Shown here in pieces: positions 1,645-55,981 of a stretch of DNA of 64,000 nucleotides. A program made the translations under genes and the position numbers. Each line of letters opens with the position of its first letter. Within the stretch, counting starts at the first letter, position 1. The notes beneath the pieces were generated by a model, which did no database searches, was not told the origin of the DNA, and saw only the letters and a list, made by a program, of their open reading frames with translations. The stretch comes from Chaetoderma sp. LZ-2023a (lineage: Eukaryota; Mollusca; Caudofoveata; Chaetodermatida; Chaetodermatidae), in the NCBI GenBank assembly GCA_034401795.1, contig CM067370.1, positions 59,197,333-59,261,332 of the forward strand, written 5' to 3'.

Positions 1645-1796
1645 CAGGCCTTTCACAGCATGTTAATTTCTTGATCGCATCATAGCGATCTTTCCGATTA
1701 TTTGGCAATAGACACAGTACCAACTGCGTTGTAGGCATCACCGTTTCACGGAGGGCATTCAGATATGATTCATTTCGATCATTGCTCAACCTAACC
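1645..1796 (-). CDS. piwi: piwi exon, MID/PIWI-domain start
   Basis: Exon of a PIWI-clade Argonaute, the piRNA-guided silencing effector of the animal germline. It encodes about 50 residues including ESYLNALRETV, QLVLCLLPNNRKDRYDAIKK and CCERP. These match the segment of PIWIL1-type proteins that reads EAYLRxLQQKV...VVCLLSSNRKDKYDAIKK (recalled family sequence). A pyrimidine-rich acceptor ending CTAG precedes position 1796 and a GTACGT donor follows 1645. Its first base completes the CA left by the exon at 10126-10313, giving a Gln codon, so the two exons join in frame across an intron of about 8.3 kb. The catalytic PIWI residues lie further downstream, outside the window. Confidence 0.92.
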
Positions 1797-1840
1797 CTAG
1801 AAATAAGAGAGCAGCAAATAATCATTTGTCACGTTTTTAG

Positions 1841-2025
1841 CTCTTTCACCGTTAAATCCAGGCAATAGTAAATTCTTCACAATTTATATCATGTTATGTT
1901 GAATATTTTGAAATTAATATAAGGCAGTAGCTTCCACTTCCCCCCCCCCCACCCCCTTAAATTAATTTTAAAATATTCAACAATTGCCTTGAAAATAAAA
2001 TATGGGGAATTTATCGGTGAAAGGA
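1841..2025. mobile_element. Short TTAA-flanked palindromic MITE
   Basis: The ends are inverted: the left end begins CTCTTTCACCGTTAAATCC and the complement of the right end begins TCCTTTCACCGATAAATTCC. They are flanked by TTAG (1837-1840) and TTAA (2026-2029), which fits a piggyBac-like TTAA target site with one flank mutated. An inner hairpin pairs 1899-1918 with 1961-1980 (19 of 20 bases), with a C-rich loop. No coding capacity. It sits just upstream of a piwi exon acceptor. The superfamily call rests on target site and end bases only. Confidence 0.65.
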
Positions 2026-2179
2026 TTAAGAAGACATTTGCCACCAAGAGCTATGCAAATGGCGCATAATACCACGCCATAATGACAAACCAATAAATGA
2101 GAGCTATTAGAAAATGTTTATTTTTTCCTCAGACCCAGACCAGCCATCCTATGAAGCGTCAAAGCCATCCGTTAACTGG

Positions 2180-3553: not shown

Positions 3554-3563
3554 TGTTAGTTTT

Positions 3564-3750
3564 CATAACAAGAGGCTCAAGGGCCTGTGGCACTCACCTG
3601 GATCATTAGCATTTGAACCATCTCATTTAAAGAAATGATGGATAATTTTCGAAGAATCCAAGACACCTAAGAAATTGACCACGCCCAATTCTCATTTGAT
3701 AGGTTGAAGATTACCACCATATAGTCCAGTAAGAATTGACATGATTTTGG
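3564..3750 (+). repeat. Left end of a hairpin-ended dispersed repeat, truncated
   Basis: Begins AACAAGAGGCTCAAGGGCCTG followed by CACTCACCTGG and 'catttgaacc', the left-end signature also found near 50717, 61481 and 62881. After about 3750 the similarity fades. It directly follows the right end of another copy at 3553, so two copies may have sat head to tail or recombined. Confidence 0.55.
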
Positions 3751-4405: not shown

Positions 4406-4678
4406 TATCACTCGCTACGTGTACATCACCAAGTAAGCACATGGCGTCATCTGCAAACGATTCTCCAAAAGGAAGAGTTCGGATACAAGATTGAAGGTGA
4501 TGCCGTAGTGCCGGTAATCACTGATAAAGAAGCAGCACCAGCAGACATATTAGCAGAGATCAGATGCTCCTGTAAGAGCGAGAGTTGTGTATCTTGTACT
4601 TGTGCCAAGAGAGGAATTCCATGCAGCATACACTGCAAATGCGAGGGGCAATATATAAATTCTCACATTGAACTTTAG
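4406..4678 (+). CDS. Terminal exon of a Cys-rich uncharacterised protein
   Basis: A 90-codon open frame starting at a splice acceptor (TTATAG) and ending in TAG. It carries HHQVSTWR, then KEEFGYKIEGDAVVPVITD, then ADILAEIRCSCKSESC followed by CTC, a Cys near IPCS and HCKCEG. This order (RVYHQVQ-W, a W/F-G-Y/W segment, then C-x-C-K-x3-C-x2-C-x-C...C-x3-C-x-C) is one I recall from the C-termini of multi-copy uncharacterised invertebrate proteins. The cysteines could bind zinc. No upstream exon is visible, so it is probably a fragment inside the piwi intron, on the opposite strand. A possible AATAAA lies near 4773. Confidence 0.6.
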   Translation, partial: YHSLRVHHQVSTWRHLQTILQKEEFGYKIEGDAVVPVITDKEAAPADILAEIRCSCKSESCVSCTCAKRGIPCSIHCKCEGQYINSHIEL

Positions 4679-5651: not shown

Positions 5652-5655
5652 TTAA

Positions 5656-8398
5656 AGCTCTCGTATTCCATTAAATATACACTTTTGCACGAGATATTAG
5701 ATGCCTGTTGAATTTACCCAGCATGCAATGCCCTGACTCCATAATCGTTGTAACTATTGGACGCCATATTCGTTTAGTCCAGTCTGCACAAGCCAGGATT
5801 TCTCAAACAAAACCACCATGCTTGCACGTGCAAATAGTCATTTGTCTTCCAGCTCTGGAAGCGTAAGCATGCACGTATGGTGTATTCACGGCAGTACAAT
5901 CGACAGTCTATTTCAATACTGTTCAGAGAAAGTGTGTCAATGTCCAGGAGAAAATAGGAGAAAGATTTTATATACATTGACAGTAATTTGTGTGAAAGTT
6001 GTTGCTATCAACATTCAAATTGTCAAAATAAATTGTATGTAATGCAATTACTAGCTGTTATATATTTGATAAAAACTGCATTGAAGTGTTGCTTCAACAG
6101 GTTTCAGTCCATGTATTCTAAAACAATCATCATAAATTTCAGTCAACACTTGCTACGGATTTGAAGACCAATTTGACTGAGTTGTTGCTGTCTAAGGCAC
6201 CAACGTTATCAAATTGGTGTCCATAGAATCACACGGCGCTCAGTATTACTATCTAAGTAGAGTGAGTATATGGCCAAAATACGCTTTACCCGAAGGAAGG
6301 AAATATTTTGCCAAGCTAGCACATGTACGTTTCTGTTGGACCAATGCATTTCAAACAAAAGCACAAATCCGTCAACGAAACATATAACGCTGTTTGCTAA
6401 GCATTCATTCTTGGCGAGAAAACGTATACAGGCCTACTATCATTTTGCCTAAATAGTAATATACTGATTGCACGTGTGTGGATAATAATTTGACAATGTT
6501 GTTGGTGTCTTAGAAACCAACAACGTAGTCAAATTGCTATTCAAATCGGTAGCGAGAGTAGACTAAAAATTATGATGATTATTTTAGACTATAGTGATTG
6601 AAAGCTGTTGTAGCAACAACTTTCATTAAAATTAGTATCTGTACCAGGTAGTAATCGCATTACCGTATAATTATTTTGACAATAACTTTACTGAATGCTG
6701 TTGCTGTCACTGATAGCAATAACTTTCACGCAAATTATTGGGTGAGGTCCAGTCTGGGTATTAGTGTTGGTGTTAGTGTTAACACTGATCATTAAAACGA
6801 AACCAGGTGTTAACACCACTAGTGATAACATTAACACTGGCCATGTTAACACTACACTGCTAGTGTCGGGGTGTAGGAACGTACTCTGATCAGGGGTGGT
6901 GGTAGGGTGGCTAATCTATGGGTGGGGCCAAAAACTAGGTGAGCTATATAGACACACTATGGCAGAAGAAAAACCTGGGGGTGGGGGGGGGGGGTGCCCT
7001 CGCCTCTATCCCACCTGTTCCTACGCCTATGATCGAGTGTTAAATTAAACACGAATCCAGTTATGAGATTTTACATAGTGCCCCGGTCTCCCCTTATGCC
7101 TAAAATGGCAAAGGCTTGGAATGCAGTGATAAAGTGGGTAAATAGGTGAACTAGTCGTCAGGAATTCATGTTTTTCATTATAACTATGTTTTCAGACTTT
7201 TCATTAACCTAAATTAAATGTTACCAGCAAACAGTCTTCAGAATTTACCATAGATATCTGAGATATGTGAATCAGGCTATATACCATCTCATATTTGTGA
7301 CCATTATGCAAGGGAGGTAATCAACTAAAAATCAAGTCATTTTATTTTTAGCTTAAATTGTCTATATGTCCAATATTTAATATCCGGTACGTTACATTTA
7401 TAAAAAGAGCGGAGAACACTCTAGATAGATATTGCATCGATGTCTTCTCTCTTCCTATTTGACGTAAATAACTATTTTCTATATAGACCAAGAAATAAAC
7501 TGGTGTCCCACAATAACGTATGGGAGTTGGAATATCGCTATATACAGTATAAAGCTATCGTTTTATGCTACGACTACAAATTTGGATCTCTTTTTATGTT
7601 AGATTGCGTTGCATATAAAAGAAATTATACGTTGACTTGTCGTTTATTAGCAGCAAGCACTAACACTAACACCAAGACTTGACCTCAACATGGTGTTAAC
7701 CTCCAGAGGTTAGTGTTAACACCAAGCTAGATATAGCTATAAATGACTAAATTTTCATCTGTCAGTGAAAAGGTAAGCTAATAACTCATTCGTATCAAGT
7801 AAATTCAGCTTATTTTATGCTGATTTGTATCTGATCCCCTTTTATTCGCTAATGACTAATGTGAAAATGAAGGCAAAAGCAGGGGTTGATATTAACACTA
7901 AAACTAACACAATATTTGGTGTTAACACCAGGCGCTAACACGTTGTTAACACTAACACGAACGTCGAGGTCAAGTCTTGTGTTATCTCAGTGTTAGTGTT
8001 GCACTAACACTAACACCCAGACTTGACCTCACCCACTGTCAAAATATATATAAAAGCTTTCTCTAATTTTCTCCTGGAAATAGATACACTTGCGTTGAAC
8101 AGTATTGAAATGCAGGCTGTCGAATGTACTGCCGTGAATAGTACAGCCTACGTGCATGCGTACGCTTCCAGAACTGGAGGACAAATGACTATTTGCAAGT
8201 GCAGACGGGTTGGTTTTGTTTGAGAAATCCTGGCCTATACAGACAAGACTAAACGAATATGGCATCCAATATTTACACTGATTATGGAGTCATGAAATTG
8301 CATGCTGGTAGCGTTGCATGCTGGGTAAATTGAACAGAAATCAGCAGGTATCCCATATCTCATGCAAAATGGTCTATATTTAATGGAACTTGAGAGCT
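5656..8398. mobile_element. Foldback-type TTAA-flanked element (nearly whole-length inverted repeat)
   Basis: The left half is the imperfect reverse complement of the right half. Left end AGCTCTCGTATTCCATTAAA pairs with right-end complement AGCTCTCAAGTTCCATTAAA, and pairing can be followed inward to a centre near 6340. It is flanked by TTAA at 5652-5655 and 8399-8402. Removing the element and one TTAA restores a block B repeat unit ('catgtgcTTAAgtttgggtcc'), so the boundaries are well supported. No transposase is seen. The arms hold smaller hairpins of the GTTGTTGCTG type (6168-6217, 6487-6535). The right arm is interrupted at 6739-8035 by another element; without it the foldback is about 1.45 kb. 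The TTAA site suggests piggyBac-type mobilisation, but the terminal bases are not the usual CCC. Confidence 0.8.
6739..8035. mobile_element. Nested non-autonomous TIR element with GTTAACAC subterminal motifs
   Basis: The left end TGGGTGAGGTCCAGTCTGGG is matched by the complement of the right end TGGGTGAGGTCAAGTCTGGG. Both ends carry clusters of GTGTTAACAC, GTTAGTG and CACTAAC words, possible transposase-binding sites. Internal terminus-like copies occur at 7658-7686 and 7963-8035, the latter a palindrome in itself. The uninterrupted opposite arm of the host foldback, near 5985-6000, reads 'caaattactgtcaa' and shows the pre-insertion site. No clear target duplication remains. An 80-codon ORF at 7440-7682 has no recognisable domain. 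Superfamily unassigned. Confidence 0.75.
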
Positions 8399-10125: not shown

Positions 10126-10313
10126 TGCTTAGGTACACTGATCATGAATCCCATTGGGGAGCCAACTCGTTGTAGTGTCTTGACTAATTCGCTCGCTTGA
10201 TTTTCATGATGCTGGACATATATGATAGCCCAGTCCACAAGGTTGATGGCAGACTGCAGCTTTTTGCCACGCATGTCACGTGACCAGTCAGCTTCAGCTT
10301 GTCTGTAATTCAG
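10126..10313 (-). CDS. piwi: piwi exon, segment leading into the MID domain
   Basis: A 188-bp exon encoding LNYRQAEADWSRDMRG, then LVDWAIIYVQHHENQASELV and RVGSPMGFMISVPK. PIWIL1-type proteins have here DYNPQFADWSKETR...WLLIYTRRNxEAA..L...KVTPAMG (recalled), so position and order agree. The acceptor is a T-rich tract ending TTTTAG before CTGAATTAC, and the donor is CA|GTAAGA. The exon ends two bases into a codon and the next exon supplies G (Gln). The expected preceding residues, between the exon at 47290-47401 and this one, are not found in the 37 kb between them. Confidence 0.92.
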
Positions 10314-13456: not shown

Positions 13457-13511
13457 CTGGTTTAAAATCAGATACCATTTACTACTCCATGAAATCACCC
13501 ATATATATATA

Positions 13512-15169
13512 TACACCTGTCCAAAAGTTAAGCACCACCCTATTTTTACGCACATGCGAGGGTATATTCATGTGCTATGAAGAAAGCAATAGCATAAACA
13601 TTTATGTATCCATCCATCTTAGTGCAAGAGGTAATAATGCAACTAGAGGAATGCTGATTATGATGGTGGGGAAACACTGTATGTTTTTGTTTGAACTTGA
13701 AAACGAGGCCTGAATATGGTTACGTTGACACAACTGACAACTATTGCCCTACAGTTGACACACGTGGCTAGATTGTCATTAATGGTGTCTGAAAACGAAG
13801 TTTAACATCTGTGCACGAGTTTGAGACTGTCATTATTAATACCGGGTATATCCACCTTGTGCCTGGATGACGGCCTGGACACGACGTCTCATGCTGGTCA
13901 CCAACCGACTGATACGCCATTGTGGTATTCGTTGCCATTCAAGATGGAGTGCGTCTGTTAATTCCTGTAGGTTCTGCACAGGAGGATCCCTCCTTCTCAC
14001 CATGTTTCCCAGAATGTCCCAGATATGCTCAATATGGTTCATGTCAGGGCTCCTTGCTGGCCATGGTAGGGTTTCGATGGCATTCTGGCGGAGGTATTCA
14101 TGCACAGCTCTAGCACGATGTGGTCGGGCGTTGTCATCCATGAATATAGGGTGGGTTCCAGGTGCATGATTTACAAAATGAGGGACCACAACTCTATCCA
14201 GTATGGAATCTTGATATCTTTGTCCATTTAGTGTTCCAGGTACAGTCAACAGATCCAGCTTACAATCAAATGAGATGCACCCCCATATCATAACGGAACC
14301 TCCACCAAATGGAACTTCTTCCATGATGTTACGTTGGTCGTACGCCGTGCGTCTGGACTTCCATACACGAGTTCGACCATCTGTGGCATGAAGCAGGAAC
14401 CGACTTTCATCGGACCAGTGTACCCGTCTCCAGGATCTCATGTTCCAGTGTCTTCTTTCGTTGCACCACCTCAGACGCTCCTCTTTGTGGTGTGCAGTGA
14501 GGAGAGGACGTCTGACAGGTCTCCTAGCTTTCATGCCAGCAGCATACAGTCTCCTTTTGACGGTAGACATTGACACTCTATTGCGCGTTTCCCATTGCTG
14601 GCTGAGCACTCTGCTGTTGGTGAATGGAGATATCCTAACAAGGCGTACTAGGGCTCGATCATCACGGGCAGTAGTCTTCGGTCTTCCAGATCTAGGCCTG
14701 TCCTTCACCTCGTTAGTTTGCCCATGTTTTGCAATCAAACGACTGATTACAGTATGGTTAATGTTCAGCTGTCTGCCAATCTCTCTGCATGACATACCAG
14801 TGGTATGCATGCCTATGATTTGCCATTTCACACGATCACTTAACCTTCGTCTTGCCATAGCGGTTCACAATCAAGAGCTAATTCTCTCTGTACAAATAAA
14901 CCACGGTCATGAACACAAAATTCCTAATCTTGTCGCCTAAATCTGTATGTAATGTTCTACACCTCAAACTGGACTTTTACATAACTGAACACGTGTGCTG
15001 TTTCCCGCCACACACGGACATCAAGCGGCGTGAAGTCATGCATGCATGTGCATTTCATACTTGGAATTATGTCAGCTAACGCGGGGACAAAAAGTATGGC
15101 AGCCTAGTTGTACCATCATGTTTCTACGTTCTATTGTTTTTGCTGGTGCTTAACTTTTGCACAGGTGTA
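13512..15169 (-). mobile_element. Tc1-type DNA transposon, apparently complete
   Basis: Terminal inverted repeats of about 28 bp: left TACACCTGTCCAAAAGTTAA, right-end complement TACACCTGTGCAAAAGTTAA, both continuing GCACCA. Each end is flanked by a TA (13510-13511 and 15170-15171), the Tc1/mariner target duplication. The 1,658-bp length and a single uninterrupted transposase ORF in the middle fit a complete autonomous copy. It lies in the intron between the exons at 13230-13456 and 15885-16154. Confidence 0.92.
13836..14858 (-). CDS. Tc1-like DD34E transposase, intact ORF
   Basis: A 340-residue cut-and-paste transposase, the usual Tc1 length. The N-terminus (residues about 6-50) is a helix-turn-helix with REIGRQLNINHTVISRLI, followed by the basic DRPRSGRP linker (53-60) typical of Tc1/Tc3 proteins and a second DNA-binding segment (about 63-120). 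The DDE_3 catalytic core has D150 in VHWSDESRF, D242 in FMDDNARPH and E277 in SPDMNHIEHIW. There are 34 residues between the last two, giving DD34E. An internal glycine-rich patch FGGGSVMIWGCI (184-195) is also typical. No stop or frame change is present, so the copy could be young or still active; activity is inference. The ATG is followed by G. Confidence 0.96.
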   Translation of the reverse strand: MARRRLSDRVKWQIIGMHTTGMSCREIGRQLNINHTVISRLIAKHGQTNEVKDRPRSGRPKTTARDDRALVRLVRISPFTNSRVLSQQWETRNRVSMSTVKRRLYAAGMKARRPVRRPLLTAHHKEERLRWCNERRHWNMRSWRRVHWSDESRFLLHATDGRTRVWKSRRTAYDQRNIMEEVPFGGGSVMIWGCISFDCKLDLLTVPGTLNGQRYQDSILDRVVVPHFVNHAPGTHPIFMDDNARPHRARAVHEYLRQNAIETLPWPARSPDMNHIEHIWDILGNMVRRRDPPVQNLQELTDALHLEWQRIPQWRISRLVTSMRRRVQAVIQAQGGYTRY

Positions 15170-15171
15170 TA

Positions 15172-18036: not shown

Positions 18037-18536
18037 NNNNNNNNNNNNNNNNNNNNNNNNNNNNNNNNNNNNNNNNNNNNNNNNNNNNNNNNNNNNNNNN
18101 NNNNNNNNNNNNNNNNNNNNNNNNNNNNNNNNNNNNNNNNNNNNNNNNNNNNNNNNNNNNNNNNNNNNNNNNNNNNNNNNNNNNNNNNNNNNNNNNNNNN
18201 NNNNNNNNNNNNNNNNNNNNNNNNNNNNNNNNNNNNNNNNNNNNNNNNNNNNNNNNNNNNNNNNNNNNNNNNNNNNNNNNNNNNNNNNNNNNNNNNNNNN
18301 NNNNNNNNNNNNNNNNNNNNNNNNNNNNNNNNNNNNNNNNNNNNNNNNNNNNNNNNNNNNNNNNNNNNNNNNNNNNNNNNNNNNNNNNNNNNNNNNNNNN
18401 NNNNNNNNNNNNNNNNNNNNNNNNNNNNNNNNNNNNNNNNNNNNNNNNNNNNNNNNNNNNNNNNNNNNNNNNNNNNNNNNNNNNNNNNNNNNNNNNNNNN
18501 NNNNNNNNNNNNNNNNNNNNNNNNNNNNNNNNNNNN
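18037..18536. other. Assembly gap, 500 N
   Basis: Exactly 500 N, a conventional placeholder, so the true distance is unknown. Tandem-repeat-like sequence ('catga', then 'agtgcatactg') starts at its right edge, so the satellite probably continues into the gap and the gap marks where the assembly failed. Piwi exons not found elsewhere may be hidden here. Confidence 1.
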
Positions 18537-39500: not shown

Positions 39501-42500
39501 TAACATGAAATGGTTAAGGCGCCAGTGCATATTGAGGAATAGTACACAATCTCCACTCATAATTAACATGAAATGGTTAAGGCGCTAGTGCATACTGAGG
39601 AATAGTACACAATCTCCACTCATAATTAACATGAAATGATTAAGGCACTAGTGCATACTGAGGAATAGTACACAATCTCCACTCATAATTAACATGAAAT
39701 GATTAAGGCGCCAGTGCATACTGAGGAATAGTACACAATCTCCACTCATAATTAACATGAAATGGTTAAGGCGCTAGTGCATATTGAGGAATAGTACACA
39801 ATCTCCACTCATAATTAACATGAAATGGTTAAGGCGCTAGTGAATATTGAGGAATAGTACACAATCTCCACTCATAATTAACATGAAATGGTTAAGGCGC
39901 TAGTGAATATTGAGGAATAGTACACAATCTCCACTCATAATTAACATGAAATGGTTAAGGCGCTAGTGAATATTGAGGAATAGTACACAATCTCCACTCA
40001 TAATTAACATGAAATGGTTAAGGCGCTAGTGAATATTGAGGAATAGTACACAATCTCCACTCATAATTAACATGAAATGGTTAAGGCGCTAGTGAATATT
40101 GAGGAATAGTACACAATCTCCACTCATAATTAACATGAAATGGTTAAGGCGCTAGTGAATATTGAGGAATAGTACACAATCTCCACTCATAATTAACATG
40201 AAATGGTTAAGGCGCTAGTGCATATTGAGGAATAGTACACAATCTCCACTCATAATTAACATGAAATGGTTAAGGCGCCAGTGCATACTGAGGAATAGTA
40301 CACAATCTCCACTCATAATTAACATGAAATGGTTAAGGCGCTAGTGCATATTGAGGAATAGTACACAATCTCCACTCATAATTAACATGAAATGGTTAAG
40401 GCACTAGTGCATACTGAGGAATAGTACACAATCTCCACTCATAATTAACATGAAATGGTTAAGGCGGTAGTGCATATTGAGGAATAGTACACAATCTCCA
40501 CTCATAATTAACATGAAATGGTTAAGGGGCTAGTGCATATTAGGAATAGTACACATCTCCACACATAATTAACATGAAATGGTTAAGGCACTAGTGCATA
40601 TTGAGGAATAGTAGACAATCTACACACCTAATTAACATGAAATGGTTATGGAGCTAGTGCATATTGAGGAATAGTAGACAATCTACACACCTAATTAACA
40701 TGAAATGGTTATGGAGCTAGTGCATATTAGGAATAGTACACATCTCCACACATAATTAACATGAAATGGTTAAGGCACTAGTGCATATTGAGGAATAGTA
40801 GACAATCTACACACCTAATTAACATGAAATGGTTATGGAGCTAGTGCATATTGAGGAATAGTAGACAATCTACACACCTAATTAACATGAAATGGTTATG
40901 GAGCTAGTGCATATTGAGGAATAGTAGACAATCTACACACCTAATTAACATGAAATGGTTACGGCGCTAGTGCATATTGAGGAATAATACACAATCTCCA
41001 CTCATAATTAACATGAAATGGTTACAGCGCTAGTGCATACTGAGGAATAGTACACAATCTCCACTCATAATTAACATGAAATGGTTAAGGCGCTAGTGCA
41101 TATTGAGGAATAGTACACAATCTCCACTCATAATTAACATGAAATGGTTACAGCGCTAGTGCATACTGAGGAATAGTACACAATCTCCACTCATAATTAA
41201 CATGAAATGGTTAAGGCGCCAGTGCATATTGAGGAATAGTACACAATCTCCACTCATAATTAACATGAAATGGTTAAGGCGCTAGTGCATACTGAGGAAT
41301 AGTACACAATCTCCACTCATAATTAACATGAAATGATTAAGGCACTAGTGCATACTGAGGAATAGTACACAATCTCCACTCATAATTAACATGAAATGAT
41401 TAAGGCGCCAGTGCATACTGAGGAATAGTACACAATCTCCACTCATAATTAACATGAAATGGTTAAGGCGCTAGTGCATACTGAGGAATAGTACACAATC
41501 TCCACTCATAATTAACATGAAATGGTTAAGGCGCTAGTGAATATTGAGGAATAGTACACAATCTCCACTCATAATTAACATGAAATGGTTAAGGCGCTAG
41601 TGAATATTGAGGAATAGTACACAATCTCCACTCATAATTAACATGAAATGGTTAAGGCGCTAGTGAATATTGAGGAATAGTACACAATCTCCACTCATAA
41701 TTAACATGAAATGGTTAAGGCGCTAGTGAATATTGAGGAATAGTACACAATCTCCACTCATAATTAACATGAAATGGTTAAGGCGCTAGTGAATATTGAG
41801 GAATAGTACACAATCTCCACTCATAATTAACATGAAATGGTTACAGCGCTAGTGCATACTGAGGAATAGTACACAATCTCCACTCATAATTAACATGAAA
41901 TGGTTAAGGCGCCAGTGCATACTGAGGAATAGTACACAATCTCCACTCATAATTAACATGAAATGGTTAAGGCGCTAGTGCATATTGAGGAATAGTACAC
42001 AATCTCCACTCATAATTAACATGAAATGGTTAAGGCACTAGTGCATACTGAGGAATAGTACACAATCTCCACTCATAATTAACATGAAATGGTTAAGGCG
42101 GTAGTGCATATTGAGGAATAGTACACAATCTCCACTCATAATTAACATGAAATGGTTAAGGCGCTAGTGGATACTGAGGAATAGTACACAATCTCCACTC
42201 ATAATTAACATGAAATGGTTAAGGCGCCAGTGCATACTGAGGAATAGTACACAATCTCCACTCATAATTAACATGAAATGGTTAAGGGGCTAGTGCATAT
42301 TGAGGAATAATACACAATCTCCACTCATAATTAACATGAAATGGTTAAGGCGCCAGTGCATACTGAGGAATAGTACACAATCTACACACCTAATTAACAT
42401 GAAATGGTTAAGGGGCTAGTGCATATTGAGGAATAATACACAATCTCCACTCATAATTAACATGAAATGGTTAAGGCGCTAGTGCATATTGAGGAATAGT

Positions 42501-45500
42501 ACACAATCTCCACACCTAATTAACATGAAATGGTTAAGGGGCTAGTGCATATTGAGGAATAATACACAATCTCCACTCATAATTAACATGAAATGGTTAA
42601 GGCACTAGTGCATACTGAGGAATAGTACACAATCTCCACTCATAATTAACATGAAATGGTTAAGGCGCTAGTGCATATTGAGGAATAATACACAATCTCC
42701 ACTCATAATTAACATGAAATGGTTAAGGCGCCAGTGCATACTGAGGAATAGTACACAATCTCCACTCATAATTAACATGAAATGGTTAAGGCGCTAGTGC
42801 ATATTGAGGAATAGTACACAATCTCCACTCATAATTAACATGAAATGGTTAAGGCGCTAGTGCATACTGAGGAATAGTACACAATCTCCACTCATAATTA
42901 ACATGAAATGGTTAAGGCGCTAGTGCATATTGAGGAATAATACACAATCTCCACTCATAATTAACATGAAATGGTTAAGGCGGTAGTGCATACTGAGGAA
43001 TAGTACACAATCTCCACTCATAATTAACATGAAATGGTTAAGGCGCTAGTGCATATTGAGGAATAATACACAATCTCCACTCATAATTAACATGAAATGG
43101 TTAAGGCGCTAGTGCATACTGAGGAATAGTACACAATCTCCACTCATAATTAACATGAAATGGTTAAGGCGCTAGTGCATATTGAGGAATAGTACACAAT
43201 CTCCACTCATAATTAACATGAAATGGTTAAGACACTAGTGCATATTGAGGAATAGTACACAATCTCCACTCATAATTAACATGAAATGGTTAAGGGGCTA
43301 GTGCATATTGAGGAATAATACACAATCTCCACTCATAATTAACATGAAATGGTTAAGGCACTAGTGCATATTGAGGAATAGTACACAATCTCCACTCATA
43401 ATTAACATGAAATGGTTAAGGCGCTAGTGCATACTGAGGAATAGTACACAATCTCCACTCATAATTAACATGAAATGGTTAAGGCGCTAGTGCATACTGA
43501 GGAATAGTACACAATCTCCACTCATAATTAACATGAAATGGTTAAGGCGCTAGTGCATACTGAGGAATAGTACACAATCTCCACTCATAATTAACATGAA
43601 ATGGTTACAGCGCTAGTGCATACTGAGGAATAGTACACAATCTCCACTCATAATTAACATGAAATGGTTAAGGCGCTAGTGCATACTGAGGAATAGTACA
43701 CAATCTCCACTCATAATTAACATGAAATCGTTAAGGCGCTAGTGCATACTGAGGAATAGTACACAATCTCCACTCATAATTAACATGAAATGGTTAAGGC
43801 GCTAGTGCATACTGAGGAATAGTACACAATCTCCACTCATAATTAACATGAAATGGTTAAGGCGCCAGTGCATACTGAGGAATAGTACACAATCTCCACT
43901 CATAATTAACATGAAATGGTTAAGGCCCTAGTGCATACTGAGGAATAGTACACAATCTCCACTCATAATTAACATGAAATGGTTAAGGCGCTAGTGCATA
44001 CTGAGGAATAGTACACAATCTCCACTCATAATTAACATGAAATGGTTAAGGCGCTAGTGCATACTGAGGAATAGTACACAATCTCCACTCATAATTAACA
44101 TGAAATGGTTACAGCGCTAGTGCATACTGAGGAATAGTACACAATCTCCACTCATAATTAACATGAAATGGTTAAGGCGCTAGTGCATACTGAGGAATAG
44201 TACACAATCTCCACTCATAATTAACATGAAATGGTTAAGGCGCTAGTGCATACTGAGGAATAGTACACAATCTCCACTCATAATTAACATGAAATGGTTA
44301 AGGCGCTAGTGCATACTGAGGAATAGTACACAATCTCCACTCATAATTAACATGAAATGGTTAAGGCGCCAGTGCATACTGAGGAATAGTACACAATCTC
44401 CACTCATAATTAACATGAAATGGTTAAGGCGCTAGTGCATATTGAGGAATAGTACACAATCTCCACTCATAATTAACATGAAATGGTTACAGCGCTAGTG
44501 CATACTGAGGAATAGTACACAATCTCCACTCATAATTAACATGAAATGGTTACAGCGCTAGTGCATACTGAGGAATAGTACACAATCTCCACTCATAATT
44601 AACATGAAATGGTTACAGCGCTAGTGCATACTGAGGAATAGTACACAATCTCCACTCATAATTAACATGAAATGGTTAAGGCGCTAGTGCATATTGAGGA
44701 ATAGTACACAATCTCCACTCATAATTAACATGAAATGGTTACAGCGCTAGTGCATACTGAGGAATAGTACACAATCTCCACTCATAATTAACATGAAATG
44801 GTTAAGGCGCCAGTGCATATTGAGGAATAGTACACAATCTCCACTCATAATTAACATGAAATGGTTAAGGCGCTAGTGCATACTGAGGAATAGTACACAA
44901 TCTCCACTCATAATTAACATGAAATGATTAAGGCACTAGTGCATACTGAGGAATAGTACACAATCTCCACTCATAATTAACATGAAATGATTAAGGCGCC
45001 AGTGCATACTGAGGAATAGTACACAATCTCCACTCATAATTAACATGAAATGGTTAAGGCGCTAGTGCATACTGAGGAATAGTACACAATCTCCACTCAT
45101 AATTAACATGAAATGGTTAAGGCGCTAGTGAATATTGAGGAATAGTACACAATCTCCACTCATAATTAACATGAAATGGTTAAGGCGCTAGTGAATATTG
45201 AGGAATAGTACACAATCTCCACTCATAATTAACATGAAATGGTTAAGGCGCTAGTGAATATTGAGGAATAGTACACAATCTCCACTCATAATTAACATGA
45301 AATGGTTAAGGCGCTAGTGAATATTGAGGAATAGTACACAATCTCCACTCATAATTAACATGAAATGGTTAAGGCGCTAGTGAATATTGAGGAATAGTAC
45401 ACAATCTCCACTCATAATTAACATGAAATGGTTACAGCGCTAGTGCATACTGAGGAATAGTACACAATCTCCACTCATAATTAACATGAAATGGTTAAGG

Positions 45501-47244
45501 CGCTAGTGAATATTGAGGAATAGTACACAATCTCCACTCATAATTAACATGAAATGGTTACAGCGCTAGTGCATACTGAGGAATAGTACACAATCTCCAC
45601 TCATAATTAACATGAAATGGTTAAGGCGCCAGTGCATATTGAGGAATAGTACACAATCTCCACTCATAATTAACATGAAATGGTTAAGGCGCTAGTGCAT
45701 ACTGAGGAATAGTACACAATCTCCACTCATAATTAACATGAAATGATTAAGGCACTAGTGCATACTGAGGAATAGTACACAATCTCCACTCATAATTAAC
45801 ATGAAATGATTAAGGCGCCAGTGCATACTGAGGAATAGTACACAATCTCCACTCATAATTAACATGAAATGGTTAAGGCGCTAGTGCATATTGAGGAATA
45901 GTACACAATCTCCACTCATAATTAACATGAAATGGTTAAGGCGCTAGTGAATATTGAGGAATAGTACACAATCTCCACTCATAATTAACATGAAATGGTT
46001 AAGGCGCTAGTGAATATTGAGGAATAGTACACAATCTCCACTCATAATTAACATGAAATGGTTAAGGCGCTAGTGAATATTGAGGAATAGTACACAATCT
46101 CCACTCATAATTAACATGAAATGGTTAAGGCGCTAGTGAATATTGAGGAATAGTACACAATCTCCACTCATAATTAACATGAAATGGTTAAGGCGCTAGT
46201 GAATATTGAGGAATAGTACACAATCTCCACTCATAATTAACATGAAATGGTTAAGGCGCTAGTGAATATTGAGGAATAGTACACAATCTCCACTCATAAT
46301 TAACATGAAATGGTTAAGGCGCTAGTGCATATTGAGGAATAGTACACAATCTCCACTCATAATTAACATGAAATGGTTAAGGCGCCAGTGCATACTGAGG
46401 AATAGTACACAATCTCCACTCATAATTAACATGAAATGGTTAAGGCGCTAGTGCATATTGAGGAATAGTACACAATCTCCACTCATAATTAACATGAAAT
46501 GGTTAAGGCACTAGTGCATACTGAGGAATAGTACACAATCTCCACTCATAATTAACATGAAATGGTTAAGGCGGTAGTGCATATTGAGGAATAGTACACA
46601 ATCTCCACTCATAATTAACATGAAATGGTTAAGGGGCTAGTGCATATTAGGAATAGTACACATCTCCACACATAATTAACATGAAATGGTTAAGGCACTA
46701 GTGCATATTGAGGAATAGTAGACAATCTACACACCTAATTAACATGAAATGGTTATGGAGCTAGTGCATATTGAGGAATAGTAGACAATCTACACACCTA
46801 ATTAACATGAAATGGTTATGGAGCTAGTGCATATTAGGAATAGTACACATCTCCACACATAATTAACATGAAATGGTTAAGGCACTAGTGCATATTGAGG
46901 AATAGTAGACAATCTACACACCTAATTAACATGAAATGGTTATGGAGCTAGTGCATATTGAGGAATAGTAGACAATCTACACACCTAATTAACATGAAAT
47001 GGTTATGGAGCTAGTGCATATTGAGGAATAGTAGACAATCTACACACCTAATTAACATGAAATGGTTACGGCGCTAGTGCATATTGAGGAATAATACACA
47101 ATCCCCACACCTAATTAACATGAAATGGTTAAGGGGCTAGTGCATATTGAGGAATAGTAGACAATCTACACACATAATTAACATGAAATGGTTAAGGAGC
47201 TAGTGCATATTGAGGAATAGTAGACAATCTACACACCTAATTAA
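18537..47244. repeat. 63-bp satellite array, about 456 units, with higher-order structure
   Basis: Head-to-tail copies of a 63-bp unit: 'gtgcatactgaggaatag', 'tacacaatctccactc', 'ataattaacatgaaatgg', 'ttaaggcgcta'. GC is about 38%. All six frames of the consensus contain stops, so it is non-coding. Variants (gtgaatatt, gcgccag, ttacagcg, gattaaggcac, ggggctag, gcggtag, and tagacaatctacacacc with atggagctag) recur in the same order in large blocks. The marker 'aaatcgttaagg' occurs only at 18600, 25211, 28865, 37681 and 43725. Allowing for eight 61-bp units, these lie 105, 58, 140 and 96 whole units apart. The left edge is hidden by the gap. The right edge is sharp at 47244, 45 bp before a piwi exon. 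The array lies within the piwi intron. Confidence 0.98.
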
Positions 47245-48955: not shown

Positions 48956-49512
48956 TCTCACTCTACCTCTGGTAGTAAAACATCTTAGATCATTAATGAC
49001 ACTGATATTTAATAATTGGAATGCCGTTTTCCATAAAAGAAATGACAACAAAATATGGAAAGGACCAGGAACTGTCATTGGCAAATATGGCTGTCGGGTT
49101 TTTGCAAGATGGTGGCACATATTTAAGAGTGTCTCCATGTAATTTAAGACACACTTCTGATGAGATTATCTCTGAAGAAAAAGGAACATCTTCAAATAAT
49201 TCTTATGATGCTGAAAACATCGAGTATGATAATCCAGTATTAGAATCATATGAAGAAAGCAATCTTAATTTATTATTTGACCCAAAGACTTCACAAGATA
49301 TCATATATTTGCCAACAAAGAATCTGTCGATGCTCAAAATGTTCATGTTAGTGTTACTACAGATACTGATGAAATTCTTAACGCAAACCCTACTATAGAA
49401 ACAACAGAACTTCCTGAAATCAATTCCAGAATACAGTATTTACTTAATGAGTGGTTGTAATTATTAGAGCTGGTAAAGTTAGAGGTAGAAACAAGTACTG
49501 GCCAAATATTAA

Positions 49513-49713
49513 CCCGTAGCACACTGATGTCAATATTCTATCTTTTATGGTGTCAATAGCAAAGAAACCAAGTGTTTATTTTTCAACAATTTTGGTGGAA
49601 GATGTTGCTGTCTATGATAGCACCATCTTCACCAAATTTGTTAAAAAATAAACACCAGTTCAAATTTTACTCTAATTTGAAAATTTTAAATCTTGACATC
49701 AAAATGCTAAGGG
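49513..49713 (+). mobile_element. 201-bp piggyBac-type MITE, copy 1
   Basis: Flanked by TTAA at 49509-49512 and 49714-49717. Left end CCCGTAGCACACTGATGTCA, right-end complement CCCTTAGCATTTTGATGTCA. The centre is a long hairpin: GTGTTTATTTTTCAACAA at 49572 pairs with its mirror ending 49655, around TGGTGGAAGATG / CATCTTCACCA. TTAA target sites plus CCC ends are the hallmark of piggyBac-family MITEs. No coding capacity. Inserted in the tail of the LTR fossil. The same family, inverted, is at 51859-52068. Confidence 0.85.
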
Positions 49714-49850
49714 TTAAAGATGATCATGATGATACAGTTAAGTGTCCATTTTGAAAGTTTAAGAGTGGAGAAGAATTAGTGAAGAAGTTGAAGTTTTACT
49801 CAGTTTATCTGATTATGAAGCAATTGAGATAAAAGCTAAAAAAAAAAGCC

Positions 49851-50199
49851 ACCTTAACCTTTCGGAAAATCCGAGATGGCCACTGGAAAAATCAACCAAT
49901 CAAAATTCTCATGAGAAATGTCAAAGCGTACCACCACATGATCATTACAAACCAAGTTTTGTCTAAATTGCTATTGGAGGAGTAGCATTTTCGGATAATT
50001 TTTTGAAAATCCAAGATGGCTGCCAGAACAATCGCCCAATTAAAATTTTTAGTAGAGGTTCTGGAACTTACAACCATAGGATCCTTACAAGCAAATTTGG
50101 TCGAAATCGGTCAAACCGTTAAGGAGATGCAATTTGACAGACGGACGGACGATTGACAGCCATGGCATAAGCGCACTGCCCTTTGGGCTAGGTGAGCTA
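49851..50199 (+). repeat. Right-end part of a hairpin-ended dispersed repeat
   Basis: Two diverged block-A-like units ('accaatcaaaattctcatga', 'tccaagatggctgccag') lead to 'gacggacggacgattgacag', 'ccatggcataagcgcac', hairpin GCCCTTTGGGC and TAGGTGAGCTAA at 50199. This end matches 3553 in design. The left end is missing. Confidence 0.65.
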
Positions 50200-50481
50200 A
50201 TGAACTGGCGAATTAAACAAAACAAAATGTATATGTAGAAGTACTTGATCAGGGCTTTAGATTATCCCTTAGCTTTGACTTCAAGTTATGCCCAAAGGAA
50301 ATCTGCCAATATTTGTGAGCCCAAATTAAAATCCTCCTGGCTGCTATGAACTTTAATTAACTGAGTGATACATGTACAGCCAATTAAATACTCAGAGATG
50401 GATACTGTGCCATTTGATGGTCTTATAGTGATATTAAAACTAAAATGGCTCAATATCAATCTCTCAGATTTCAAAATTCTC

Positions 50482-50560
50482 TTAGTTTCTAGGAGCATTG
50501 ATGGATCCCAGACCAGATCTTAGTTTCTAGGAGCATTGATTGATCCCAGACCAGATAGGT
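50482..50560. repeat. 38-bp tandem duplication
   Basis: 'cttagtttctaggagcattg' followed by 'atggatcccagaccagat' occurs twice in direct tandem with a one-base difference. A recent local duplication. The surrounding 50200-50716 has no other recognised feature. Confidence 0.85.
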
Positions 50561-50716
50561 GGTGTGCCCAAATGACCAAAATCTAGAGCCCTGTTGATGT
50601 ACATGTAGATAAAACCAGAACTGTGGTTGCAATGCAACCATGAAGCTAGACTTTATGACTGCAATGAACTATGAAGCTTGACCCCCAAACAAATAATAAA
50701 TATTAAGGCCTTATCA

Positions 50717-52570
50717 CCAAGAGGCCCAAGGGCCTGTAACACTAACCTGGACCATTATGATTTGAACCATTTGCATTTAAATACTGGTAGACGTCGTAAT
50801 TTTTGAAAGAAATCCAAGATGCCCACCAAAGAAGTTGACCAATCAAAATTCTCAATTGATATGTTGAAGCCTACCACCATATATAATCATTCTACCCAAT
50901 TTAAGGGGTAGCGTTTTAAATGATTAGAACTGTAGTTTTCAAAAAATCCAAATGGCCACCAAAGAATTCTGCCTAGAAGTTCTAGAGCCTACTACTATAG
51001 AATCCTTCCAGTCCAATTTGGATCAAATCCACCAAGCAGTTTCGGAGATGCACTTTGACAATTTCTGGTAAACCTTTCGTAAAATTTATGATTTGCACCA
51101 GACAAATTGACCCATTAAAATTTTTAATAGATTTTCAGGAGCCTACCATGATAGGGTCTGTCTAGCCAAATAGGGTTGAAATCTTTCAAGTGGTTAATGA
51201 TGAGTAGCGTTTACACAATTTCCGGTAAATTATTCATAAAATCTCAGGTTTTCACCAAATGAATTGACCAATTACAATTCTGTATATAAGTTCTGAAACA
51301 TACTCCCATAAGGTCCTTCCAGCCAATGTAAGTCGAAATCTGACGAGCCGTTAATGAGGAGTATCATTTTGACAATTTCCTTTAAATTTCTCATAAAATC
51401 TATGGTTTTCACAAAAAAAATTGACCAGTCAAAATGCTGTATATAAGTTCTTAAGCATATCCCCATAAAGTCCTTCCAGCCAAAGTAATTTGAAATCTTC
51501 CAACCGGTTAATGAGTAGTAGTGTATTGGCAATTTCAGGGAAGACTTTTCATAAAATCTAAGGTTTTCACCACAAAAAAAACCCTGTGACTAATAAAAAT
51601 TCTATATATAACTTCTGAAGCATATCCCCATAAGGTCATTACAGCCAAAGTAAGTTAAAACCTGCCAAGCGGTTAATAAGTAGAGTTATGACAATTTCTG
51701 GTAAATCGTTCATAAAATCAAGTATTTTCACACAAATAACTTGACCAAGCAAAATTCTGTGTACATGTTCTGAAACCGAAAGCATAAGGCTCTGAAACCG
51801 AAAGCATTAGGCTCCTTCAGGTTAATTTTAGGTTGAAATATACCAAGCGGTTAATTAACTCTTACCGCTGTCAAAATTTTAAAAATTTTAAATTAAATTA
51901 AAAGATGAACTGGTGTTCATTTCTCTACTTCCTTGTTCTACAAATTTGGTGGAAGATGGTGCTGTCATGGACACCAACATCGTTCACCAAAATCGTTGAA
52001 AAATCGACACCAGTTTCTCGTCTACTGACACAGTAATGGATAGAATATTGACGTCAGTGTGGTAAGGGTTAAGTGCTTTGACAATTTTCGTTAAATTTTT
52101 CATAAAATTTCAGAAAACCTAAAAAAATGTACCAATCAAAACTCTATACAAATTCTGAAGACTTCCCGTAGTCCTGTCCAGCAAAATTAGGTTGAAATCT
52201 GCCAAGCGGTTAATGAGCAGCATTTTTACACAAAGGTTGACGGATAGATGACGGATGAAAGACAAAGACGGTCATCATGCATATCAGTCACCTTGACCTT
52301 TCAACAAAAACATTGTGTGATGCCGTGTCATTATAAGGAGACATGTGTCCAAGTTTGGGTTCCAGTATGATGAAACAAACCTGAGATAAACAGAAAAGTT
52401 GAACTAAATGGAAAATGTTAATGTTGAAAAAAAAAAGGTTTCTACCAAGGTCACAGTGGCCTTGACCTTTTGACCACAAGGTCATCGTGCAATGCCGCAT
52501 CATTATAAGGAAGCATGTGCCCAAGTTTGCGTCCACTATGATTAACCAAACATGAGATAAACAGAAAGTT
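50717..52570 (+). repeat. Hairpin-ended composite repeat: left end, block A, block B
   Basis: Starts CAAGAGGCCCAAGGGCCTG with CTAACCTGGACC. At least six block A units follow, marked by 'cataaaatc' near 51076, 51234, 51391, 51549, 51709 and 52098, about 157 bp apart apart from the last. Two block B units follow at 52280-52570 ('ccagtatgatgaaacaaacc', 'gaccttgaccttt'). A 23-bp duplication sits at 51767-51812. A TTAA MITE interrupts it at 51859-52068. The right hairpin-CTAA end is absent. No protein is encoded. Confidence 0.75.
51859..52068 (-). mobile_element. 210-bp piggyBac-type MITE, copy 2
   Basis: Same family as 49513-49713, in reverse orientation. Flanked by TTAA at 51855-51858 and 52069-52072. 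Ends are CTCTTACCGCTGTCA and, as complement of the right end, CCCTTACCACACTGACGTCA. The central hairpin words TGGTGGAAGATGGTGCTG and CACCAACATCGTTCACCA are shared. Removing it with one TTAA restores the block A phrase 'gccaagcggttaa...gtgctttgacaattt', so the insertion is clean and younger than the block A array. Confidence 0.88.
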
Positions 52571-52960: not shown

Positions 52961-53234
52961 TCGAAATAGCTCATTTTACTTCATAAAGTTGAGTTAAAAA
53001 ACCATTTCACTTCAATAGGTTACTACAGAAAAAACAAGCGTAGTTGTGCAATTATTGATGATAATGGCAAGTTCTCTTTGTTAGTTTGGCAATCAAAAAG
53101 AGTAGGCGCATAGTCAAAAGTACATTAGCAGCAGAAACATTAACTTTGATAGATTCTTCTGAATGATGCTGTTTAATTAGAACAATTATCAATGAAATGT
53201 ATGGCTATAATCAGAGCAGGCCTGTACAAATTGT

Positions 53235-55045
53235 AACCCATTTTTTTGTTTGCGCAACGGTTACCAGGGTTCGATCTCTACTTATGTCCGCTAGTCCGAG
53301 ACTACCAGATTGTCATACAGACTACTTATAGTCTGTTGGTCACAACTCCGGTGGACTAGTACAAAATTTGTCAAAATTATCCATTAGACTTGCAAAAATG
53401 AAATATTCCATGACATTGAAAAAACTAATGCATTAAGTTTCTTGCAAACACGCAAGCTTACCCGCTTAAAATTACCGTAGAAGCTATATATGTTAAAATC
53501 TATGATAGCAGTGCCTGTTCATAGTCGGCAACCATTCTGGAGTGTTTGCATTTAATTCATGCTCAGTTTTTTTTGGTTTCTATATGATAGGACATAAAAG
53601 ATTCGAAAACAACCGAATTGCGAAATCGCTTAATGTGTGCAAAGGTGCTGACATCGTAAAACGAATTACTTGGTCAATTCAGCCTAGAGGGATACAAGAA
53701 TTGCTCACTGCCTCGTAGCTGGGTTGCATGACTTATGAATTGATCGGTAATTAAGTAGAATTCATAAAATTGATTTTGACCGATAATGACATATCTGTAT
53801 GGCTTGGAAACTACATATAATATAGTATAACGATTAAACCAAAGCGAATATCTGTACACTCTACATTTAATAATTAAACAAGTATACTGATGACAGATTT
53901 TGCCGAGTAACATATACACACACTCCCAACGTTCACGACGTATTGAAAATTCCGGTTCATTTTGTACTAGAGGGGGATATGAGAATTGCTATTATCCCGG
54001 AACATTGTCATGTCGAATAGTAATGTCTATATCAAGCGATTTTGGGACAAATGTTATGATAAAATGTATTAAATTATCACTAAGCTACTATTAGAACATC
54101 GTGAGCACACTTTCTGGACAATACAATTCGATATTTAATCATTTCACGGCTTGAATTGACAACTTTTTAAAGACAAAATGGTGGTAGGATAGTCAGAACT
54201 GAAAAAATTATGCCATTACACATACTCCAATTCAATGACTGACCATCTAAGAGTCTGTTTTAGATAAAATATCACAGCGCATAGTAGCTACACGATGTAT
54301 GATACCATGTAGCCTGGTTCCCAAATAAATGCCCCCGGGAACCAAGCTCCCGCAATGGGTAAGGTGTACTGCAGCTCTGAATGCATTAACTTCCTGGTTA
54401 GTGTGCTATAAAAATATGTGCGTGTTAAGATATTGCCATGACTTGTAAAATAGTAACGCAATTTGGACACGTAACATGTTAATTTTTCTTAGATGCACCA
54501 AAATTTATGATCATGGCGTCTATTATTTAACATGTGCAATGCGTTAATCCTGTATTTCGATCAGAAATTTAAAGAAAAAATCTTATTTAACATGACTGCG
54601 CATATATATTCATACACGTGATTTGCCGATTACCGGAACTACACAACAAATTACATATGGTGCCTGGTTCCCTGTACAATATAATTTTATAGTGCTAAAA
54701 GAATTGATAGCGGTTCCAAACTAATTATGCAATATCAAATCAAGCGATAAGAGTACTAAAAACCTTGGCGGGAAATGTGAGTACCATAGGATATGTATTG
54801 TGTGGTATGTAAGATTTTCCGAACCCCCATTAACAGGACTAGTGCTTTTATCTGCGGACTCATCTATTTTCAAAATCACTAGTCCGACAGACTAGTGGCA
54901 TAAAAAGTTAAGATCGACCCCTGGTTACGCAAATATTTTTAGCGCAACACTTTTGAGTTATAGTTTTCTTTACTCTGTACATAAATATATGTAAAAACAA
55001 ATGGGTTAGCTAAAATAAATTTGGATAACCCAAATATGGGTTGCA
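53235..55045. mobile_element. Candidate long-TIR element, decayed
   Basis: A left segment ('gtaacccatttttttgtttg', 'ggttaccagggttcgatctc', 'gctagtccgagactac') is matched in inverted order near 54830-55040 ('gactagtccgacagactagt', 'gatcgacccctggttacgca', 'aacccaaatatgggtt'). The similarity is interrupted on the right by about 60 extra bases. The interior has no recognised protein; the minus-strand ORF at 53674-53919 is low in information. GGTTCGATC in the left arm resembles a pol III B box. Boundaries and class are uncertain. Confidence 0.4.
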
Positions 55046-55786
55046 CTAGTACCATTTTGCCAATAACTTTCATTACTGACAATAGAGCTTTAGTAGATGC
55101 AGTTTATTCCATGACATCTGTAACAGACAAGCCTTTGCGTATAGATATCAGTGTTGTTAGCGATATATAGTGAGATGTGAAGTCCTTTGGGTTTCTAAAG
55201 AAAAGCAATTAGTTTACTGTCTCACAAAAGGCGGTTAGTTGACTGTCTCACAAAAGGCAGAGATCCGAGAAATAAGCTACTTGATGTCATAAATGGAAGT
55301 GTTGGTTTTAATTCTAAACCTCTTTATAATGTTGGGTTATTTTATTATTATCCCTCAGTAATGTCACATGACCAAATGCTGTTATTTGATTGGTTAAGAT
55401 CAGGGATGTATTATCCAGTATTTTCCTCACGCGAGGGCAATAATACACAGTATCCACCCGACCCAACCCCATGGTTTATGACTTTAACACAGTTCCAACT
55501 AACAACCTGTCACCATTACTGATGACACACAGACCCATGGTCGGATGCCTGGACACTGGATCACCACTCCAGTTCAGCTAACTGACATGTCAGCCGAAGT
55601 AAAAATTGTCTTATCTTGTCCGGCAAAGACATTTCTCAAGAGCCCTTGATAATCAAGCTAGTCAGTCCCATGCTAAATTAAAAAAGTGTTCTCATGGTCT
55701 GCAAATGAACATTTTCTATGAGACGATTACAATTTTCTTGACAAAATTTTAGGGTTACAGGGTAAGCTTACTATTAATAAACTCAC
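55046..55786. other. No confident feature
   Basis: Intronic sequence. It includes a duplicated 'agttgactgtctcacaaaaggc' type phrase (about 55210-55260), a segment around 55520-55590 that may be a decayed repeat, and the intron start of the piwi PAZ exon at its right edge. Confidence 0.3.
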
Positions 55787-55981
55787 CTGGTAAGTACAAT
55801 TGAACCAGTCAAACGACGTGTACATACTTCATGAAAGTTTGCCTGATTACTCCCATACAACTCGTACATAATGTCTAAAACCGTATCACTGCGGAGGATT
55901 TTATGGGACACGTCGGCACATAACATGACCTTGGATTCGTACTGGAGGATAGACGTTATAAATCCCGGCATGACCTTTAAC
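55787..55981 (-). CDS. piwi: piwi exon, PAZ domain
   Basis: A 195-bp exon encoding LKVMPGFITSILQYESKVML, then CADVSHKILRSDTVLDIMYE and ARRLTGSIVLTR-like sequence (here CTRRLTGSIVLTR). PIWI proteins read LELWPGFVTAV...LMLCxDVSHRxL...TVLxxxxDIY...LVGSIVLTRYNN (recalled), so this is the start of PAZ, which holds the 2'-O-methylated 3' end of the piRNA. The acceptor is TTCTTTTTACAG and the donor is ACCAG|GTGAGT. The last two bases plus the G of the exon at 47401 make Arg. This is the most upstream exon recognised; N-terminal exons were not found up to 64000. Confidence 0.94.

What the first reader, a model, noticed from the sequence alone, without database searches (positions are those of the whole stretch)
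1645..55981. A piwi gene spread over more than 54 kb of repeats
Four minus-strand exons with PIWIL1-type peptides occur in the correct order, and both testable splice joins keep frame (Arg across 55787/47401, Gln across 10126/1796). The introns hold a satellite, a minisatellite, foldbacks, MITEs, a live-looking Tc1 and an LTR fossil. A gene of the transposon-silencing pathway that is itself this full of repeats could feed piRNAs back onto its own transcript. That feedback is inference; the exon calls are direct.
Basis: partly seen in the sequence, partly recalled or inferred. Interest (0 to 1): 0.85.

Follow-up and report, generated by a model that had tools for sequence, protein, structure and literature searches.

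The report
Piwi gene with duplicated catalytic exon
The window holds the middle of a real, very long animal Piwi gene whose repeat-filled introns look ordinary for its genome, but just outside the window the gene carries two versions of the exon for its cutting site, suggesting it can make two different Piwi proteins.

Summary
The four exons are real: minus strand, in order, correct splice borders, both claimed joins in frame, best match human PIWIL1. The gene is larger than claimed: 106 kb from exon A to the stop, 140.6 kb if an RG-rich ATG exon upstream belongs to it. e2 and e3 are not neighbours: about 120 residues between them were not found in the assembly, and a 500-N gap lies there. Most of that intron is a 28.7-kb, 63-bp satellite; all 353 exact genome copies of a 22-mer from it lie here, none inverted. 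But 2 of 10 random 3-kb stretches are pure tandem array and one tested array also looks single-locus, so this is ordinary here. piRNA feedback has no support and was not testable. Unexpected: outside the window, the exon with the catalytic Asp and Glu occurs twice in tandem (G1, G2), same phases, 175 bp each, 40 of 58 residues shared, third-position changes dominating: probable mutually exclusive exons giving two PIWIL1 proteins. No RNA evidence exists for this.

The parts
55787..55981 (-). exon e1 of the PIWIL1-type gene (into the PAZ region), 195 bp
   Evidence: TTTTTACAG| acceptor, |GTGAGT donor; PIWIL1 244-311 at 53% identity
47290..47401 (-). exon e2 (PAZ, first part), 112 bp
   Evidence: TTACAG| acceptor, |GTAAGT donor; PIWIL1 311-346 at 56%; Pfam PAZ E 3.0e-7 at C12:59244622-59244741
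18552..47244 (+). 63-bp satellite array, 28.7 kb, nested higher-order repeats, inside the e2-e3 intron; begins 45 bp after the end of e2
   Evidence: TRF 455.7 copies, 96%; 448 parsed segments of 34 kinds; longest exact internal repeat 5975 bp; exact 43-mer 345 of 345 and 22-mer 353 of 353 genome copies here, 0 inverted
18037..18536 (.). 500-N assembly gap, the only one in the fetched 184-kb locus; probable place of the missing PAZ/linker exons (inference)
   Evidence: missing stretch not found elsewhere
13510..15171 (-). Tc1-type DNA transposon in the e2-e3 intron, open transposase frame on 14864-13836, same strand as the gene
   Evidence: 28-nt TIRs at 96%; Pfam HTH_Tnp_Tc3_2 2.3e-16, DDE_3 4.1e-11; exact 24-nt TIR end 14 times in the genome, this place included
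10126..10313 (-). exon e3 (linker L2/MID), 188 bp
   Evidence: CTGTTTTAG| acceptor, |GTAAGA donor; PIWIL1 469-523 at 35%
1645..1796 (-). exon e4 (MID), 152 bp
   Evidence: TTTCTAG| acceptor, |GTACGT donor; PIWIL1 535-580 at 54%
500..1543 (.). 34-bp minisatellite in the intron after e4
   Evidence: TRF 30.6 copies, 92%
5718..8308 (.). foldback-like inverted repeats in the e3-e4 intron
   Evidence: arms 167 and 69 nt at 86%
49509..52072 (.). foldback-like inverted repeats in the e1-e2 intron
   Evidence: arms 60, 75 and 45 nt at 80-84%

Best explanation
This is a working-looking PIWIL1-type gene of an unidentified animal with a 2.44-Gb genome. Its located exons run from C12:59271354 to the stop at C12:59165318 on the minus strand (a probable RG-rich start exon lies at C12:59305931); the window covers PAZ and MID exons. 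The pre-mRNA must be transcribed through long repeat-rich introns that are the genome's usual background, including one locus-private 63-bp satellite that probably grew recently by unequal exchange. The PAZ-end/linker exons most likely exist but fell into the 500-N gap where the assembly broke beside the satellite. The gene most likely makes two proteins: exon F is spliced either to G1 or to G2, two tandem versions of the 58-codon exon that carries the first catalytic Asp (GID-YHD) and the Glu finger (QEL/EEL), and then to H. Because each version is 175 bp, using both or neither breaks the frame, so one alone must be used. Shown: exons, borders, phases, duplication, constraint, satellite location. 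Inferred: expression, mutual exclusion, functional difference, exons in the gap, the RG exon's membership.
For: Fourteen exons (13 in any one transcript) in PIWIL1 order with AG/GT borders and compatible phases within the two blocks A-e2 and e3-K, the second ending in a stop, no internal stop. The e3-K block (with G1) aligns to human PIWIL1 in one stretch, E 5.7e-153, with D, E, D, H kept (which residues are catalytic is recalled). RG-rich exon with ATG upstream. Missing stretch: human PIWIL1 and Ephydatia Piwi-A probes find the exons of the C14 piwi gene and nothing on C12, and the only gap of the fetched locus lies at that point. G1 and G2: both 175 bp, enter in phase 0 and leave in phase 1; 40 of 58 residues equal but only 12 of those 40 codons identical; 41 of 58 third positions against 35 of 116 first and second positions differ; NG86 dN 0.40, dS not computable, taken as saturated: an old duplication with both copies under constraint. 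G1 has the weakest acceptor tract and donor of the gene (6 of 12 pyrimidines against 7-11 in the other constitutive exons; donor score 2.4 against 5.1-11.7); G2 is at the low end (7 of 12, equal to e2; donor 5.7).
Against: No RNA evidence for any junction. The exon(s) between the RG exon and A, and the missing PAZ/linker exons, were not found, so the whole frame is untested and the RG exon's membership rests on position, strand and composition only. The missing exons could be lost rather than in the gap: e2 ends and e3 begins in phase 0, so direct joining would keep frame, at the cost of about 120 conserved residues. G2's splice sites are not clearly weaker than those of e2, e3 or I. Whether other animals share G1/G2 could not be tested.
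Confidence: 0.72

Rival explanations
1. One reading: the intronic repeats feed piRNAs back onto the gene's own pre-mRNA and tune piwi expression.
For: By exact words the satellite is private to this intron, so an antisense small RNA matching those words could act only here; in flies satellites do yield piRNAs (PMC8321551 abstract) and in culicine mosquitoes satellite piRNAs regulate genes (PMC9962485 passages); a Tc1 copy with relatives elsewhere lies in the intron.
Against: No inverted copy of the satellite by exact words (0 reverse against 345 and 353 forward), so antisense RNA would need antisense transcription of the piwi intron itself; long arrays are common in this genome and the one tested also looks single-locus; the Tc1 frame lies on the gene's strand. 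No RNA data.
Confidence: 0.06
2. Splicing gate: the long satellite intron makes productive piwi splicing depend on the exon junction complex or on a dedicated long-intron program, so output is set by splicing capacity.
For: Drosophila piwi intron 4 splicing needs the EJC, and AGO3, with very large introns, loses mRNA on Tsu but not Acn depletion (PMC4197968 abstract and passages); satellite-filled giant introns of fly kl-3/kl-5 need special RNA-binding proteins (PMC6508621 abstract); 226 of the satellite's TTCCTCA(G/A) sites read TTCCTCAG on the sense strand, a possible decoy acceptor (222 read TTCCTCAA).
Against: Long introns are usual here (C14 piwi: about 31 kb between two located exons), and 28.7 kb is far from the megabase introns of the fly cases. 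No splicing data.
Confidence: 0.15
3. G2 (or G1) is a dead duplicate, not a used exon.
For: G1 has the weakest splice sites of the gene and G2 low ones; G2 departs more from human PIWIL1 (20 of 58 identical against 28 for G1).
Against: Open frames, matching phases and splice borders, and changes concentrated at third positions in both-constrained fashion over a saturated synonymous distance.
Confidence: 0.2
4. Pseudogene or mis-scaffolded locus: the gene is broken at the gap and the other Piwi gene (C14) does the work.
For: About 120 conserved residues were not found in the assembly; the join between e2 and e3 is an N gap, not sequence.
Against: No stop or frame break within either spliced block, one order and orientation on both sides of the gap; C14 looks PIWIL2-like rather than a copy (E 1.2e-12 with a PIWIL2 stretch, 2.6e-11 with PIWIL1; weak evidence).
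Confidence: 0.08

Closest known systems
Human PIWIL1 / molluscan Piwil1 clade (PDB 9s0z_B; PMC6128900)
   Same: Exon-encoded domain order, catalytic positions, best hit E 5.7e-153; Piwil1 and Piwil2 are conserved in molluscs (PMC6128900 abstract and passages)
   Different: Gene of 106-141 kb; duplicated catalytic exon; a stretch missing at the gap; the species is unidentified, so the mollusc clade is only a guess
Drosophila piwi and AGO3 with EJC-dependent or very large introns (PMC4197968)
   Same: Piwi-family gene whose expression must pass demanding introns
   Different: No splicing data here; fly piwi is described as compact and euchromatic, this intron is mostly satellite
Satellite-filled introns of Drosophila kl-3/kl-5 (PMC6508621, abstract)
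   Same: Tandem satellite inside an intron
   Different: Tens of kb here, megabases there; 63-bp unit here, simple satellite there; transcription here not shown
Culicine tapiR / MCpiRCL satellite piRNA loci (PMC9962485, passages)
   Same: A satellite locus as a possible small-RNA source
   Different: Here inside a piwi intron; no small-RNA evidence
Shrimp Ago1 isoforms (PMC3510085, search listing and start of abstract only)
   Same: Argonaute gene with several isoforms
   Different: Here a tandem exon pair for the catalytic core of a PIWI protein, isoforms inferred only

Membership tests
PIWIL1-type PIWI protein | PIWI domain with D-E-D-H positions | tested here: met
   alignment to 9s0z_B (GID, QEL, YRDGVGD, YAHKLAF) for the G1 form; GID and EEL in G2; tetrad identity is recalled
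PIWIL1-type PIWI protein | complete PAZ domain | tested here: inconclusive
   first part present; rest not found, gap there
PIWIL1-type PIWI protein | RG-rich N-terminus | tested here: inconclusive
   RG-rich ATG exon upstream on the same strand; its join to exon A not found
PIWIL1-type PIWI protein | closer to PIWIL1 than to PIWIL2 or Ago | tested here: met
   E 5.7e-153 PIWIL1, 6.1e-120 PIWIL2, 7e-47 Ago2 for e3-K with G1; no tree built
Mutually exclusive exon pair | tandem homologous exons, same phases, length not divisible by 3 | tested here: met
Mutually exclusive exon pair | one alone used per transcript | not testable with these tools
   needs RNA
piRNA source locus | 24-30-nt RNAs, antisense or phased | not testable with these tools
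   no RNA data
piRNA source locus | antisense or inverted copies of the repeat available | tested here: not met
   satellite: 0 reverse against 345 and 353 forward by exact words; for the Tc1 other TIR copies exist
Tc1/mariner transposon | TIRs beginning at TA, HTH plus DDE transposase | tested here: met
   the left flank is a TA run, so the target duplication itself is ambiguous
   ungapped direct repeats >=90 bp only; one pair 5.4 kb apart (105 nt, 81%), not followed up

The most novel reading that the evidence does not exclude
One PIWIL1 gene encodes two alternative catalytic cores: tandem exons G1 and G2, each carrying the first catalytic Asp and the Glu finger, are spliced in a mutually exclusive way, so the animal can switch its PIWIL1 protein between two slicer versions, for example between germline and soma.
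Probability: 0.5. Interest if true: 0.68.

Novelty: new variant of a known kind. Interest (0 to 1): 0.5.

Why it matters
If G1 and G2 are both used, a PIWI protein's cutting centre would be a spliced, switchable module, which would let different slicing roles, or soma and germline roles, be separated within one gene. I saw no report of this in the listings (15 of 40, 15 of 350 and 0 of 0 papers listed).

Tried and rejected
Rejected: a candidate missing exon at window 50507-50436 (37.5% over 24 residues, E 0.61): out of order, and it overlaps a 38-bp tandem duplication. Direct e2-e3 joining keeps frame but would delete about 120 conserved residues. Satellite as RNA hairpin: z -1.5, 16 of 200 shuffles fold as well, so no case. 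Rfam: 0 matches at gathering score in the window. Pfam on 8 window frames: only the Tc1 frame passes a cut-off. Literature: 40 papers with piwi and mutually exclusive exons, 15 listed, none by title on a piwi gene's own exon pair; two more searches gave 350 (15 listed) and 0 papers. Species: a paper search with 2.44 Gb gave 0, the COX1 search did not complete; the animal stays unidentified and mollusc is a guess. A Tc1 count by protein did not complete; only the TIR count exists. The second control array (L033) was not counted in the genome. I built no tree and ran no structure prediction.
Full report
What was claimed and what is there. All four are present with correct splice borders: e1 55981-55787, e2 47401-47290, e3 10313-10126, e4 1796-1645; the e1-e2 join reads Arg and the e3-e4 join Gln. 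Joined, they match human PIWIL1 best (9s0z_B, E 2.5e-58), then Ephydatia Piwi-A and other Piwi chains. Chance is not a serious option.

The whole gene. The window is C12:59197333-59261332 of a 2,438,752,110-base genome in 2,753 contigs. Fourteen exons were delimited, each with AG before and all but the last with GT after: A, B, C upstream of the window; e1-e4 in it; F, G1, G2, H, I, J, K downstream, K ending in a stop. From A to the stop this is C12:59165318-59271354, 106.0 kb. An RG-rich frame with an ATG at C12:59305931, on the same strand, is a probable start exon and would make the coding span 140.6 kb; its membership rests on position and composition, since the exon or exons between it and A were not found. 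The e3-K block aligns to human PIWIL1 residues 480-870 at E 5.7e-153, against 6.1e-120 for PIWIL2 and 7e-47 for Ago2.

Other Piwi/Argonaute genes. The Pfam Piwi search gave 18 exon-size matches: 5 on C12 (this gene), 3 on C14, 10 on C17 in two opposite clusters; only the best candidates are scored there, and G1 was not among them. C14 is a second piwi gene over about 81 kb (97510849-97591910), PIWIL2-like on weak evidence; the C17 pair looks Argonaute-type (by eye).

The missing piece. e2 ends near PIWIL1 residue 357 and e3 starts near 476. The roughly 120 residues between (end of PAZ and linker) have no match in the C12 locus with four reference stretches at E 0.5. Genome-wide, Ephydatia Piwi-A gives three rows, two on C14 and one on C13 at E 7.6, and human PIWIL1 three rows, all on C14, one of them at E 6.4; none is on C12. 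The fetched locus has a single gap, 500 N, at window 18037-18536, between e2 and e3. The simplest reading is that the exons lie in the gap.

The repeats. The e2-e3 intron (36,976 bp as assembled, gap included) is mostly a 63-bp satellite, 18552-47244, 455.7 copies by TRF. Cut into units it gives 448 segments of only 34 kinds, arranged in long repeated strings of kinds; the longest exact internal repeat is 5,975 bp. Such a structure fits recent unequal exchange of large blocks, though an assembly error cannot be ruled out. An exact 43-mer occurs 345 times in the genome and 345 times in the window; a 22-mer 353 and 353; none inverted. Diverged copies elsewhere are not excluded by exact words. 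A 1.66-kb Tc1-type element with TIRs and an open transposase frame sits in the same intron on the gene's strand; the exact 24-nt end of its TIR occurs 14 times in the genome, this one included.

Controls. In the other 155 kb of the C12 locus and 80 kb of the C14 and C17 loci the next-largest array is 1.28 kb. The 184-kb locus has 35.6 kb in arrays of 400 bp or more (summed, stricter threshold), about a fifth. A 24-mer from one random array occurs 237 times, none inverted; the 100 listed places all lie in C12:80975001-80981939, beside the sampled stretch. The other random array was not counted. So long arrays, at least one of them apparently single-locus, are a habit of this genome, and the size and repeat load of this piwi gene are not special.

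The duplicated exon. PIWIL1 residues of about 621-682 are encoded twice in tandem: G1 (C12:59190994-59191168) and G2 (C12:59189575-59189749), 1,244 bp apart. Both are 175 bp, enter in phase 0 and leave in phase 1, so a transcript with both or neither is out of frame downstream. Both keep GID-YHD and the Glu of QEL/EEL. 40 of 58 residues agree, but only 12 of those 40 codons are identical; third positions differ at 41 of 58, first and second at 35 of 116; NG86 gives dN 0.40 and no finite dS, YN00 gave no result. That is an old duplication with both copies constrained. G1's splice sites are the weakest of the gene; G2's are at the low end but overlap those of e2, e3 and I. G1 is closer to PIWIL1 (28 of 58) than G2 is (20 of 58); G2 with its neighbours hits PIWIL2 chains best (2.7e-13, against 8.6e-10 for PIWIL1). 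The fetched part of the C14 gene shows one copy. No third copy shows in the rows printed, whose output was cut. I saw no report of such a pair for a piwi gene in the listings.

How it most likely works. The gene is transcribed as a long pre-mRNA, the repeat-rich introns are removed, and one of the two core exons is chosen (inference). A splicing gate, as for Drosophila piwi intron 4 and the large introns of AGO3 (PMC4197968, abstract and passages) or the satellite introns of kl-3/kl-5 (PMC6508621, abstract), is a better-grounded way in which such an intron could matter.

Verdict. Observation confirmed and enlarged; interpretation partly supported. As a repeat-rich piwi gene it is ordinary; the probable mutually exclusive catalytic exons are the part worth following.

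Noticed in passing
G000:C17:69638495-69659927 (-) and 70042810-70055641 (+): Two Argonaute-type gene copies about 0.4 Mb apart in opposite orientation; one piece of the first (69640307-69640498) reads through 2 stops. Inverted duplication or uncollapsed haplotype.
   Followed up: no
G000:C15:121431682-121432101 (+) and 121672460-121672879 (-): Two PAZ matches in very long open frames (863 and 681 aa), about 240 kb apart in opposite orientation, perhaps Dicer-like (name is a guess); same inverted-pair pattern as the C17 genes.
   Followed up: no
L030 (C12:80986534-80989533) and L033 (C12:25923578-25926577): Random stretches that are tandem array from end to end; about a quarter of the sampled 30 kb is tandem repeat.
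   Followed up: partly
window 51054-51776, 56415-56971, 61606-62696 and the C14 and C17 loci: Short arrays with periods of about 150-176 bp recur in the C12, C14 and C17 loci, perhaps one dispersed family.
   Followed up: no
C12, about 59327000-59341332 (upstream of the gene, L018-L020): Long open frames resembling a reverse transcriptase and a recombinase, in similar copies (by eye).
   Followed up: no
window 18552-47244, sense strand of the gene: 226 TTCCTCAG and 222 TTCCTCAA sites: about half the units carry a possible decoy splice acceptor.
   Followed up: no
window 18537-18551: After the gap come 15 bases that fit the satellite badly before the array begins; contig-end error or true array edge.
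   Followed up: no
   Followed up: partly
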